The notes under the pieces are model-generated. The model was not told the DNA's origin and made no database searches. It was given only the letters and a program-made list of their open reading frames with translations. A stretch of DNA of 46,248 nt from a virus: positions 1 to 46,248 of IMG/VR virus record IMGVR_UViG_3300025913_000061. The stretch is one strand, 5' to 3'. This document shows, one piece after another, positions 2-46,248 of the stretch. How positions within the stretch are numbered: the first letter of the stretch is position 1; the number at the start of each line of letters is the position of its first letter. Position numbers and translations under genes: made by a program.

Positions 2-127
2 GAACAACGCCGCACCGAGATACTGCGCATCCGGCTCACCGAAGCCGAAGCGCAAGCCGTCGAAGCCAGAGGCGGCGCCGAGTGGGCGCGTGCTGTTCTC
101 GTCAGAGCCGCGAAGCGCAAACCCTAG
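2..127 (+). CDS. C-terminal part of a small GRPP-type putative DNA-binding protein (5' partial)
   Basis: The second forward frame is open from the window edge to a TAG at 125-127 and encodes 41 residues, beginning EQRRTEILRIRLTEAE and ending AAKRKP. This is the C-terminal pattern of very small mobile-element proteins that start M-x-R-x-GRPP-x-P and then carry a short beta strand (TEILRIRL) and one helix, probably ribbon-helix-helix-like DNA binders. The window ends with a matching N-terminus, MPRTGRPPLP, at 46219. Joined directly the two pieces are out of frame by two bases, so a short stretch is missing if they are one gene. The gene points against the HNH gene at 166-525 and converges with it. 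That the two ends belong together is inference. Confidence 0.6.
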   Translation, partial: EQRRTEILRIRLTEAEAQAVEARGGAEWARAVLVRAAKRKP

Positions 128-10253: not shown

Positions 10254-10462
10254 GAGGCCCGCCTACGAACGGGACGAAGCCGGCCACCCTCAGCCAGGCT
10301 CTCCAAGTACTGGTCGAGCCAGTCGCGGCGGACGAGGCGGCGACGGCCAACCTTCGCGTTACGGATCTTCCCCGCGTTCAACATGCGGGCCGTTGTCAGC
10401 GGCGCCTTGCGGAGAATCTTGGCAACGTCGTCAGCGTCCAACCATTCGTAGTCGGCCATCAT
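10250..10462 (-). CDS. Excisionase-like helix-turn-helix protein
   Basis: A 70-residue protein with the MerR/excisionase winged-helix signature: WLDADDVAKILRKAPLTTAR, a turn, then GKIRNAKVGRRRLVRRDWLDQYL. The basic tail fits DNA binding. As the second gene of the early operon, next to the immunity switch and about 1.3 kb from the integrase, it is the natural candidate for the recombination directionality factor, though transcription regulators share this fold. It starts at the ATG at 10462, overlapping the upstream TGA by three bases (ATGA). Confidence 0.75.
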   Translation of the reverse strand: MMADYEWLDADDVAKILRKAPLTTARMLNAGKIRNAKVGRRRLVRRDWLDQYLESLAEGGRLRPVRRRAS

Positions 10463-10779
10463 GCGGCCCGCGTGTGCTTCGCAACAGGTTGTTCCGCAAC
10501 CCTGGACAACTCGACCACGAAAAGATCAGAGACGTCGACCGAGAGTGCCTTGCACAGCAGCGTGGCGGAGTCGTTCTTGACGCTGTTCTTCCGGCCTTTG
10601 ATCAGGTGGCTGATCATCGCGTGTGATGTCCAGCCGACCTCAGCGGCAATCTGCCGATGTGTCTTACCTGATAGGGCAACGCAACGTGCGAGCGGCTTGC
10701 GTTTCGCCTCCGGTAAGTACACCCAGATCACCCTTCGTTTTTCTCGCTGCGGTGTCGCCACGGTAGTCCCTTTCGCCAT
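10459..10779 (-). CDS. XRE-family regulator (Cro-like), first gene of the early operon
   Basis: A 106-residue helix-turn-helix protein. Residues 30-75 show the XRE pattern (GKTHRQIAAEVGWTSHAMISHLIKG) followed by KALSVDVSDLFVVE, the usual tail of lambda-type domains. It diverges from the repressor gene at 10982 and heads the leftward early operon, the classic place for a Cro-like repressor. I use the ATG at 10779; an upstream in-frame TTG at 10803 overlaps the proposed -10 box. The proposed promoter (-35 TTGACT 10826-10831, -10 CATCCT 10803-10808) contains the GGTAACC operator-like site. Confidence 0.8.
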   Translation of the reverse strand: MAKGTTVATPQREKRRVIWVYLPEAKRKPLARCVALSGKTHRQIAAEVGWTSHAMISHLIKGRKNSVKNDSATLLCKALSVDVSDLFVVELSRVAEQPVAKHTRAA

Positions 10780-10802: not shown

Positions 10803-10831
10803 AGGATGCGCTCGCGGGTAACCAAAGTCAA
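10803..10831 (-). promoter_or_regulatory. Candidate leftward early promoter
   Basis: Reading leftward, TTGACT (10826-10831) and CATCCT (10803-10808) are separated by 17 bases. A GGTAACC element (10817-10823) lies in the spacer, where a bound repressor would block polymerase. It is placed just ahead of the Cro-like gene. The -10 match is modest. Confidence 0.5.
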
Positions 10832-10930
10832 TAGAAGCACACGCTTGTAGTTCCGCACTAAAGGCACACCCGCTGGTCAGCGGTACTGGACAGGGCGAAC
10901 CCGATTGGTAGACAGATGTTGGTAACCAAA
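10817..10930. promoter_or_regulatory. Operator-like sites between the divergent regulators
   Basis: GGTAACCAAA occurs twice in this 200-bp intergenic region, at 10817-10826 and 10921-10930. The second is extended to the odd-centred palindrome TTGGTAACCAA (10919-10929). A separate perfect palindrome CCGCTGGTCAGCGG lies between them at 10870-10883. The spacing and the position between a Cro-like and a repressor gene suggest a lambda-like switch with sites for one or both regulators. Confidence 0.55.
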
Positions 10931-25996: not shown

Positions 25997-26170
25997 ATGG
26001 ACATGGCCCCAGAGATCCTGCGAAACCTGCTCACCGAATGGCTCCGATGGTGGGCCAGCGACGACTCGGCGCCTGTAGAGATGCCCGACGACCTTCATGT
26101 GCGAACGGCTTTAGCGCTCGGATGGACTGAAGCCACCGTTAAGGACTGGCTGTCCGTCGTCCGCAACTAG
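25997..26170 (+). CDS. Small moron gene opposing the late operon
   Basis: A 57-residue acidic protein (MDMAPEILRNLLTEWLRWWA, then TALALGWTEATVKDWLSVVRN). It resembles a small helical protein with a helix-turn-helix-like second half. It reads rightward between the tape measure and the gene ending at 26174, both of which read leftward, and fits exactly into that gap. This is the arrangement of a moron, an independently expressed added gene. Start choice is uncertain: ATG at 25997 (six bases after GACTAT), ATG at 26003, or a TTG at 25979. Confidence 0.5.
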   Translation: MDMAPEILRNLLTEWLRWWASDDSAPVEMPDDLHVRTALALGWTEATVKDWLSVVRN

Positions 26171-36480: not shown

Positions 36481-36735
36481 ATGGGATCGCAAAGGCTTAG
36501 GCCAGAGTTGTGGCCGCAAGAGCCGCCGCAATCGCTTGAGTTCTGCCATTCGCCCGGAGCACACTTGGCTGACCGTGGTGCGTGGCAGTGGCGGATAGAT
36601 CTCGACACGGGAAAGCCGTTCGGCAGGTGCGTTCACTGCTTCAAGGAGCAGCGGCCACAACTCGATCGGGCCAAGCACGAGCGCGAGCAGCGTCGTCGGC
36701 ACTTACGCGATCCGCGACTGAACGGCCTTAGCTGA
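36481..36735 (+). CDS. Small zinc-knuckle moron gene opposing the late operon
   Basis: An 84-residue basic protein reading rightward in the 281-bp gap between two leftward late genes, overlapping the portal stop by eight bases. It contains CHSPGAHLADRGAWQWRIDL and GRCVHCFKEQ; C22, H28 and the CVHC pair could bind zinc. The C-terminus is strongly basic (REQRRRHLRDPRLNGL). The opposite frame (36427-36702) is also open, but has no ribosome binding site and less protein-like composition. Direction and placement suggest a moron, possibly a regulatory or host-interacting factor. Confidence 0.6.
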   Translation: MGSQRLRPELWPQEPPQSLEFCHSPGAHLADRGAWQWRIDLDTGKPFGRCVHCFKEQRPQLDRAKHEREQRRRHLRDPRLNGLS

Positions 36736-41340: not shown

Positions 41341-41383
41341 GGCTGCTCCTAGAAAGAATCTTGAAGCTCTTCGGTCAAACGTA

Positions 41384-41412
41384 TTGCGTTAGGTGGTCTG
41401 ACGTAATACGTT
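41384..41412 (+). promoter_or_regulatory. Autoregulated promoter of the ribbon-helix-helix operon
   Basis: TTGCGT (41384-41389), a 17-bp spacer and TACGTT (41407-41412), then six bases to the ATG at 41419, which predicts a leaderless message. Each box lies inside one of two inverted operator copies, so a bound dimer pair would cover the whole promoter. Confidence 0.65.
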
Positions 41413-41418
41413 AGTCCC

Positions 41419-41607
41419 ATGAACACACGCGGCGCACTCTCAAGAGCAGTCCTGGCCCATCGTGACCGCCGTTCTGCGGAGAGCATGGTCTTGCACGCGG
41501 CCCGCCGGATCAGTGGCGACCGTTGCCTAAACGACCCGATCAAGGCGCTTGACATTCTCGGCGCGGAGGGCGTGACTTGGCACGACGTCCTAACCATCAA
41601 CTCCTGA
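41419..41607 (+). CDS. Small protein, first gene of the ribbon-helix-helix operon
   Basis: A 62-residue basic-then-acidic protein (ALSRAVLAHRDRRSAESMVL, LNDPIKALDILGAEGVTWHD). No family recognised. It is followed with a one-base overlap (TGATG) by a ribbon-helix-helix gene. Two coupled small genes with an autoregulating second product resemble toxin-antitoxin operons, but no toxin motif is visible. The leftward open frame 41349-41600 over the same DNA has no ribosome site and covers the operators, so I reject it. Confidence 0.6.
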   Translation: MNTRGALSRAVLAHRDRRSAESMVLHAARRISGDRCLNDPIKALDILGAEGVTWHDVLTINS

Positions 41608-41822
41608 TGGCTAACGTATTGCGTGTGCCGCGACCGAAAGGCTCAGGACGCCCCAACCAGGCCCGCAAGCTCATCAGCCTGTACGTGTCCGAAGCCGGCC
41701 TGCAAGCTGTCGACAAGGTCGCTGAGCAGTACCAATGCACCCGCAGCGACGTTATCCGCCTCGCGTTGAAGCACGGACTAGACCAAGCCGAAGCCGAACT
41801 GAAACGTATTGCGTCGTCCTAG
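41607..41822 (+). CDS. Ribbon-helix-helix transcriptional regulator
   Basis: A 71-residue CopG/Arc-type protein: basic arm VLRVPRPKGSGRPNQARK, beta strand KLISLYVSEAG, helices LQAVDKVAEQYQCTRSDVIR and LALKHGLDQAEAELKRI. It should bind DNA as a dimer through the KLISLYV strand. The ATG at 41607 overlaps the previous stop by one base. Two operator-like repeats lie in its own coding sequence and two in its promoter. Lying between the late operon start and the right-hand genes, it may control both its own operon and the divergent late genes. Confidence 0.75.
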   Translation: MANVLRVPRPKGSGRPNQARKLISLYVSEAGLQAVDKVAEQYQCTRSDVIRLALKHGLDQAEAELKRIASS

Positions 41823-42100: not shown

Positions 42101-42129
42101 TCGACATAACCCGCCTGACCTGCGAGAAT
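42101..42129 (+). promoter_or_regulatory. Promoter of the 42137 gene, probably leaderless
   Basis: TCGACA (42101-42106), a 17-bp spacer and GAGAAT (42124-42129); the ATG follows seven bases later with no ribosome site. The same -35 box and spacing recur before the next gene. Confidence 0.65.
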
Positions 42130-42136
42130 TGGTGCC

Positions 42137-42460
42137 ATGGACTTCGATCACGAAGCGATTCGCACCATCGACGTTGTTTGCCGCGATGAAGCCGGCCGGC
42201 CGTTGATGGCGTATCAGCTGCGCGTGGACCCCGAGGTCTACCGTGGCGCCGTGACCTGCGAAGTCCTTCAACCGCAGGAGCCGATTGACTACGACTCGCG
42301 CCGTGTCTATCTGCCGCCGTCACGATCGTTCAAGATCACTGCACCGCTGGGCGAGGGTAGCGAAGTCCGCGTCGGCGCTGCTATCGAGAACACCGTGCTT
42401 TGCCGCTGGGACGCCGAGGTCGAGCAGTACGTCCCTGTTATGGCTGCCGTTTCCCGCTAG
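42137..42460 (+). CDS. Hypothetical protein with its own leaderless promoter
   Basis: A 107-residue mostly beta-strand protein (DFDHEAIRTIDVVCRDEAGR, MAYQLRVDPEVYRGAVTCEV, SFKITAPLGEGSEVRVGAAI). No family recognised. It is transcribed alone, against the direction of the operon to its right. This suggests expression under different conditions from the lytic genes, perhaps in the lysogen. Confidence 0.65.
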   Translation: MDFDHEAIRTIDVVCRDEAGRPLMAYQLRVDPEVYRGAVTCEVLQPQEPIDYDSRRVYLPPSRSFKITAPLGEGSEVRVGAAIENTVLCRWDAEVEQYVPVMAAVSR

Positions 42461-42483
42461 CTTGTCTCTGCTGGTTTGAACCG

Positions 42484-42512
42484 TCGACATGCGGCCTGTG
42501 ACGTGGGAAAAT
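42484..42512 (+). promoter_or_regulatory. Promoter of the 42518 gene, probably leaderless
   Basis: TCGACA (42484-42489), a 17-bp spacer and GAAAAT (42507-42512), with the ATG five bases later. The -35 box and spacing are identical to those of the preceding gene, so the two share a promoter type. Confidence 0.65.
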
Positions 42513-42517
42513 CAGGT

Positions 42518-42712
42518 ATGAACATGGCGCGGTGCGAGGTCTGCGGCCACCAAGGTTGCCCTGGAGATCCCGTTATCCAGCGGTCTGACCATGTGGCCCC
42601 GGATCATCTTGTCTGCCGCGACGACTGGGCCTGCTTCAAGCGCTTTTCGGCGCTACCACAACTCTGGAGGAAGCGCGGGCCCCTATCGGCCCTTGCAAGT
42701 AGCCGCCGATAG
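42518..42712 (+). CDS. Small zinc-knuckle protein
   Basis: A 64-residue protein (MNMARCEVCGHQGCPGDPVI, then LVCRDDWACFKRFSALPQLW). Cysteines C6, C9, C14, C33 and C39 can form one or two zinc sites. An internal ATG at 42524 is an alternative start. Flanked by 17-bp direct repeats. Function unknown. Confidence 0.6.
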   Translation: MNMARCEVCGHQGCPGDPVIQRSDHVAPDHLVCRDDWACFKRFSALPQLWRKRGPLSALASSRR

Positions 42713-42789: not shown

Positions 42790-43014
42790 TCACTTCACAG
42801 TCGGTTTGTCTGCTGGTTTGAACCGTTTGTCATCCCGTGGCGTAGGAATGTGCCGGCGACGGGAACGTTCAGCCAAAATGGCTGTCACCCGAGCCAGTTC
42901 CTCGACGAAGCCGGCCAGCTTGCCCTCTTCGATGCAGAACAGGCACCAGGCGTCTTCTCCGCGCATGACGACCATGTGAGGGGTTCCGCAGCAGATACAC
43001 CGGAGCTGATGCAT
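42790..43014 (-). CDS. Zinc-ribbon protein, last gene of the right-hand operon
   Basis: A 74-residue protein with LRCICCGTPHMVV and WCLFCIEEGK, a CxCC...CxxC zinc ribbon, then a helical basic tail (RVTAILAERSRRRHIPTPRD). Coupled to the gene upstream (TGATG). It converges with the rightward gene ending at 42712; the 77-bp gap between them shows no clear terminator. Confidence 0.65.
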   Translation of the reverse strand: MHQLRCICCGTPHMVVMRGEDAWCLFCIEEGKLAGFVEELARVTAILAERSRRRHIPTPRDDKRFKPADKPTVK

Positions 43015-46149: not shown

Positions 46150-46178
46150 ATTGTGGCCCCTAAAGTCTGTCGCGTCAA
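46150..46178 (-). promoter_or_regulatory. Leftward promoter of the right-hand operon, possibly leaderless
   Basis: Reading leftward: TTGACG (46173-46178), 17 bp, CACAAT (46150-46155), then six bases to the ATG at 46143. The -35 box is strong, the -10 box fair. It stands back to back with the rightward promoter at 46184-46212. Confidence 0.55.
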
Positions 46179-46183
46179 CCCTC

Positions 46184-46212
46184 TTACACAAGCTTTCTGT
46201 GGCCGCTATAGT
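46184..46212 (+). promoter_or_regulatory. Rightward leaderless promoter at the right end
   Basis: TTACAC (46184-46189), 17 bp, TATAGT (46207-46212), then six bases to the ATG at 46219. With transcription starting about seven bases after the -10 box, the message would begin at the ATG. This is the best promoter match in the window. Confidence 0.75.
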
Positions 46213-46218
46213 GGGGTA

Positions 46219-46248
46219 ATGCCCCGCACCGGACGCCCACCGCTCCCA
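46219..46248 (+). CDS. N-terminal part of a small GRPP-type putative DNA-binding protein (3' partial)
   Basis: Ten codons, MPRTGRPPLP, run to the window edge. The M-P-R-T-GRPP start is typical of short mobile-element proteins followed by TEILRIRL-like strands, exactly what enters at base 2 of the window. No ribosome site; the promoter at 46184-46212 predicts a leaderless message. If the edges are cohesive ends, the gene is cut by the packaging site and is whole only in the circular form in the cell. Confidence 0.55.
   Translation, partial: MPRTGRPPLP

What the first reader, a model, noticed from the sequence alone, without database searches (positions are those of the whole stretch)
42101..42520. 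Twin leaderless promoters TCGACA-N17-GARAAT
Two consecutive small genes have the identical -35 box, spacing of 17 and near-identical -10 boxes, with ATG 5-7 bases later and no ribosome site. Adding 41419, 46219 and possibly 41857, 36481, 25997 and 46143 gives a class of single-gene leaderless units separate from the operons, a likely prophage-expressed regulon.
Basis: partly seen in the sequence, partly recalled or inferred. Interest (0 to 1): 0.6.

Follow-up and report, generated by a model that had tools for sequence, protein, structure and literature searches.

The report
Leaderless promoters on small phage genes
Two small genes in this uncultivated temperate actinobacterial phage really do sit directly behind near-identical host-type promoters with no room for a ribosome site, but this is the ordinary actinobacterial 'leaderless' arrangement already described in related phages, and a shared prophage regulon is not shown.

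Summary
The twin promoters are real. TCGACA-N17-GAGAAT-N7-ATG(42137) and TCGACA-N17-GAAAAT-N5-ATG(42518) are exact, with 0 matches in 100 shuffles. In the whole 46-kb record only six distinct sigma-70-like sites pass a 9/12 cut-off; four lie 5-7 nt upstream of a gene's ATG: 42137, 42518, 46219(+) and 46143(-). Leaderless SigA-type transcription is the best reading.

The wider class is only partly supported. 41419 is a good candidate but heads an operon and lies inside a probable operator of a ribbon-helix-helix regulator. 41857 and 25997 have Shine-Dalgarno-like sequence; 36481 is weak; 46143 appears to head a leftward operon. No common regulator site links the set, so 'regulon' is unsupported.

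The phage encodes an integrase, but lysogenic expression is untested. Related and annotated actinophages show the same box-to-start spacing. In seven annotated phages TANNNT at 5-8 nt precedes 16/64 against-flow genes versus 1/417 with-flow; four further phages replicated this only weakly (3/48 versus 3/204, p=0.085). Corndog and Adephagia are published precedents. Verdict: new member of a known kind, low interest.

The parts
42101..42129 (+). Promoter P1: TCGACA-N17-GAGAAT, TG one base before the -10, 7 nt before ATG 42137
42137..42460 (+). Small orphan gene (107 aa), against the leftward operons; no relatives found
   Evidence: coding-like codon-position G+C, coding score; no relatives, no family
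42484..42512 (+). Promoter P2: TCGACA-N17-GAAAAT, TG one base before the -10, 5 nt before ATG 42518
42518..42712 (+). Small orphan gene (64 aa), Cys-rich (CxxC) protein; a second ATG at 42524 is an alternative start
41384..41412 (+). Probable promoter TTGCGT-N17-TACGTT, 6 nt before ATG 41419, inside inverted repeat 41378-41412
41378..41412 (.). Inverted repeat AACGTATTGCGT ... ACGTAATACGTT over the 41419 promoter, probable RHH operator (inferred); AACGTATTGCGT again at 41613-41624 and 41803-41814
41419..41607 (+). First gene (62 aa) of an operon whose stop overlaps the start of the RHH gene
41607..41822 (+). Ribbon-helix-helix (CopG/Arc-like) regulator, 71 aa
   Evidence: PHROG 876 E 5.5e-5, PHROG 7325 E 2.3e-4; Pfam RHH_1 below cut-off
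46183..46212 (+). Promoter CTTACA-N18-TATAGT (or TACACA-N16), 6 nt before ATG 46219
46150..46178 (-). Divergent promoter TTGACG-N17-CACAAT, 6 nt before ATG 46143 (-), at the head of a run of leftward genes
36481..36735 (+). Single against-flow small gene (84 aa) between portal and the next structural gene; GATAGT 6 nt before the ATG, no clear -35

Best explanation
42101-42129 and 42484-42512 are two host-type (SigA/sigma-70-like) promoters, each with TG one base before the -10. They drive two small accessory (moron-like) genes that run against the leftward phage operons, near the terminase genes. Because the -10 ends 5-7 nt before the ATG, transcription should start at or within a base or two of the ATG, and the mRNAs are translated as leaderless messages, as is routine in actinobacteria. 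Shown: the hexamers, spacing, position, absence of a ribosome site and coding signature. Inferred: SigA use, the start at the ATG, and expression independent of the lytic operons and so probably on in lysogeny. Not shown: any common regulation of the set.
For: Exact twin motif. Only 6 distinct sigma-70-like sites in 46 kb, 4 of them 5-7 nt before an ATG. No SD above background; coding-like codon-position G+C. Same box-to-ATG distance (6-7 nt) in related IMG/VR phages and in annotated Vendetta, Giles, Abba and Redi. TANNNT at 5-8 nt in 16/64 against-flow versus 1/417 with-flow genes of seven annotated phages. Closest annotated phages infect actinobacteria, where about a quarter of transcripts are leaderless (PMC6448022). 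Published actinophage precedents.
Against: The -10 boxes are GANNAT, not the preferred TANNNT, so the promoters may be weak. ATG 42524 with a weak AGG upstream is an alternative start for the second gene. The against-flow enrichment replicated only weakly in four more phages (3/48 versus 3/204, p=0.085). No relatives of the two proteins exist to test conservation of the promoters. No transcript data.
Confidence: 0.8

Rival explanations
1. The motifs are chance hexamer matches upstream of ORFs that are transcribed from further upstream and translated with weak or no Shine-Dalgarno help.
For: The hexamers are imperfect (9 of 12 each) and the pair was picked by eye; 42518 could be reached by read-through from 42137, as no convincing terminator was found between them.
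Against: Position statistics and the same distance peak in independent phages.
Confidence: 0.1
2. One reading: the twin together with 41419, 46219, 41857, 36481, 25997 and 46143 forms one prophage-expressed regulon under a common control.
For: Several are small against-flow genes with a box at leaderless distance; Adephagia gene 90 (leaderless, lysogenically expressed) and CarolAnn genes 36 and 39 are precedents for lysogenic expression.
Against: No shared regulator site: the RHH repeat is confined to 41378-41814. 41848/41857 and 25997 have SD-like sequence. 46143 appears to head a leftward operon. 41419 is in an operon with the RHH gene.
Confidence: 0.08
3. P2 is a duplicated promoter module: its upstream half is an 18-bp exact copy of sequence at 42809-42826, so the 42518 unit arrived by recombination at a short repeat and the promoter similarity to P1 reflects common descent.
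For: TCTGCTGGTTTGAACCGT is exact at 42467 and 42809; the P2-R local alignment scores 48 against a shuffle maximum of 33.
Against: P1-P2 similarity outside the hexamers is not above the best unrelated matches in the record. This concerns origin, and is compatible with the main explanation.
Confidence: 0.3

Closest known systems
Leaderless SigA promoters of Cluster O mycobacteriophages (Corndog PL1, PR2, PL2), PMC4351075
   Same: [quoted passage not shown] a divergent pair, and one driving a single gene against the structural operon
   Different: Different phage group and sequence; Corndog's are single promoters, here two neighbouring genes share an identical -35 and spacing
Adephagia gene 90 promoter P90, PMC11373665
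   Same: Single small gene with predicted leaderless transcript; experimentally shown to be expressed in the lysogen
   Different: HicB-like antitoxin, with the flow of the early operon; the genes here have no known family and no expression data
Actinobacterial leaderless transcripts (M. smegmatis, PMC6448022)
   Same: ANNNT -10 box a few bases before the start codon and no leader; about 24% of M. smegmatis transcripts
   Different: The -10 here is GANNAT (the weaker VANNNT class) with TG upstream
Prophage morons (accessory genes with their own promoter; e.g. ST64B STMMW_20121, PMC7067206)
   Same: Small gene, own promoter, antisense to the lytic genes
   Different: No measured lysogenic expression here, and no terminator found after the twin genes
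Cluster K SAS/ESAS, PMC11373665
   Same: Repeated promoter or start-region sequence before several small genes of one phage
   Different: SAS is a 13-bp start-codon-proximal element and ESAS an inverted-repeat promoter with leader; these sequences are not seen here

Membership tests
Leaderless SigA-type promoter (actinobacterial) | ANNNT -10 box with its end about 5-8 nt before the start codon | tested here: met
   GAGAAT 7 nt and GAAAAT 5 nt before ATG
Leaderless SigA-type promoter (actinobacterial) | preferred TANNNT -10 | tested here: not met
   both are GANNAT, the weaker VANNNT class of PMC6448022; not a strict requirement
Leaderless SigA-type promoter (actinobacterial) | no Shine-Dalgarno above background | tested here: met
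   -3.7 and -4.2 versus random median -3.1 and leftward-gene median -6.75
Leaderless SigA-type promoter (actinobacterial) | 5' end of the transcript at the start codon | not testable with these tools
   no RNA data for an uncultivated phage
Moron (prophage accessory gene) | own promoter and orientation against the lytic operon | tested here: met
   for 42137 and 42518
Moron (prophage accessory gene) | own terminator | tested here: not met
   no + strand terminator-like site at the ends of 42137 or 42518; the scan finds no more sites than shuffles
Moron (prophage accessory gene) | expression in lysogeny | not testable with these tools
   no RNA data
Single prophage regulon | shared regulator site at all members | tested here: not met
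   AACGTATTGCGT only at 41378-41814; TGGTAACCAA only at 10816-10929

The most novel reading that the evidence does not exclude
Across actinobacterial temperate phages, a leaderless host-type promoter 6-8 nt before the start codon marks genes that escape the lytic programme, so lysogeny-side accessory genes could be recognised from sequence alone while lytic genes use leadered, SD-bearing messages. The twin here would be two orphan examples.
Probability: 0.25. Interest if true: 0.5.

Novelty: new member of a known kind. Interest (0 to 1): 0.2.

Why it matters
If leaderless promoters do mark genes that stay on in the prophage, small unknown genes of uncultivated phages could be sorted into likely lysogeny-expressed and lytic sets without RNA data, which would help pick candidates for phage-defence and host-modifying genes. 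The finding itself is a clean but ordinary example.

Tried and rejected
Relatives of the 42137 and 42518 proteins: none for either in IMG/VR, and none for 42137 in the phage collection or the related records. Host prophages through terminase and integrase in genome contigs: none. Extended twin motif before ATG in IMG/VR: one hit, L063, antisense to a long ORF that looks like a tape measure gene, in a record with no terminase relative; judged chance. P1 and P2 as duplicated copies: the local score of 33 is reached by 1 of 2000 shuffles, but unrelated parts of the record score 35-38, so duplication is not established. AlphaFold of the 42137 protein: pLDDT 54, not usable. Family and defence libraries: no hits for 42137, 42518 or 41848. 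Idea that against-flow genes always carry leaderless boxes: BritBrat 17 and Kita 16, single against-flow genes before the tape measure gene, do not.

Full report
What the record is. The window is a complete virus record of 46,248 bases from IMG/VR. It has 62% G+C, a large block of leftward genes and a tyrosine integrase. Its closest annotated phages by portal (43% identity) and helicase (35%) infect Gordonia, Mycobacterium and Arthrobacter; terminase relatives in IMG/VR are 31-62% identical. The integrase lies inside the record with phage genes on both sides. A gene starting at 46219 (MPRTGRPPLP...) is cut by the record end, and window 2-127 reads EQRRTEILRIRLTEAEAQAVEARGGAEWARAVLVRAAKRKP*. 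That looks like the rest of a short DNA-binding protein (weak NikA-like match, E 0.01), so the record is probably a nearly closed phage genome and not an integrated prophage. The phage is temperate by gene content; lysogeny is not shown.

Observation. Both motifs are exact: TCGACA-N17-GAGAAT-N7-ATG at 42137 and TCGACA-N17-GAAAAT-N5-ATG at 42518. Because that pattern was written from the pair, I used a fixed consensus instead. In the whole record, both strands, six distinct sites pass 9 of 12. Four lie 5-7 nt upstream of an ATG opening an ORF: 42137, 42518, 46219(+) and 46143(-). Markov-simulated sequence gives 0.54 such hits on average and at most 3. At 8 of 12 there are 40 sites, four at this distance from the 75 gene starts used and one elsewhere in the 80 nt upstream. 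Neither twin gene has a ribosome site above background, and both have the codon-position G+C of real genes.

The other sites. 46219 and 46143 form a divergent leaderless pair; 46143 is the first of a run of leftward genes, so it is not a single-gene unit. 41419 has TTGCGT-N17-TACGTT-N6-ATG lying in the inverted repeat 41378-41412. The 12-mer AACGTATTGCGT recurs exactly at 41613 and 41803, in two different reading frames of the ribbon-helix-helix gene 41607-41822; about 0.006 exact matches would be expected in the record by chance. I infer an autoregulated operon. 41857 is not a leaderless start, because the in-frame ATG 41848 has a strong Shine-Dalgarno match. 25997 has GGAGG upstream. 36481 has a -10 at the right place but no clear -35.

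How general it is. In about 700 kb of related IMG/VR sequence the same scan finds 34 sites, and counts of ATG-started ORFs by distance from the site peak at 6 and 7 nt; three of the listed cases are the same gene in near-identical records. In six annotated Gordonia, Mycobacterium and Arthrobacter phages, 15 sites give five starts at 6-7 nt, all on the strand opposite to the main operons: Vendetta 3 and a nearby unannotated ORF, Giles 4, Abba 67, and an ORF start near Redi 34. Using only TANNNT at 5-8 nt in seven annotated phages, 16 of 64 against-flow genes have it and 1 of 417 with-flow genes, p=2.5e-14, with all against-flow distances 6-8. I then fixed that statistic and tested four more phages: 3 of 48 versus 3 of 204, p=0.085, same direction but weak, and the with-flow hits show that the box is not confined to against-flow genes. 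The first seven were chosen partly for known lysogeny data, genes within a phage are not independent, and some phages are related, so the first p-value overstates the case.

Link to lysogeny. Published work gives precedents. In Corndog, divergent promoters PL1/PR2 and the against-flow PL2 are predicted leaderless (PMC4351075). In Adephagia, gene 90 has a predicted leaderless promoter and is lysogenically expressed (PMC11373665). CarolAnn 38-39 and, at lower level, 34-36 are lysogen-expressed (PMC6426606); 39 and 36 carry TACGCT and TAAAGT at 8 and 6 nt, while 38, 35 and 34 have no TANNNT there. About a quarter of M. smegmatis transcripts are leaderless, and VANNNT promoters are weaker than TANNNT ones (PMC6448022). 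Expression of the twin genes in a lysogen is therefore plausible but inferred.

Regulon. The sites share nothing beyond sigma-70-like hexamers. The RHH repeat, exact or with one mismatch, is confined to 41378-41814, and TGGTAACCAA, a likely operator of the immunity region, to 10816-10929. I find no basis for one regulon.

Verdict.

Noticed in passing
41378-41814: AACGTATTGCGT occurs three times exactly plus one inverted near-copy, over the 41419 promoter and twice inside the RHH gene in different frames: probable operator array of the RHH regulator.
   Followed up: partly
42467-42484 and 42809-42826: 18-nt exact direct repeat TCTGCTGGTTTGAACCGT flanks the 42518 unit; the second copy lies in the 3' end of a leftward gene. 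Possibly a recombination scar of the insertion.
   Followed up: partly
46219-46248 and 2-127: An RHH/NikA-like protein appears to be split over the two ends of the record, suggesting a nearly closed genome with a very small gap.
   Followed up: partly
25997-26170 and 36481-36735: Two small + strand genes inserted singly in the leftward structural block, without family matches.
   Followed up: partly
10816-10929: TGGTAACCAA palindrome and a one-mismatch copy between an HTH gene (10459-10740, -) and gene 10982 (+): probable operators of the immunity switch.
   Followed up: no
L064-L076 (annotated actinophages): TANNNT 6-8 nt before the start codon is strongly enriched at against-flow genes in seven phages but only weakly in four more; worth a full survey.
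   Followed up: partly
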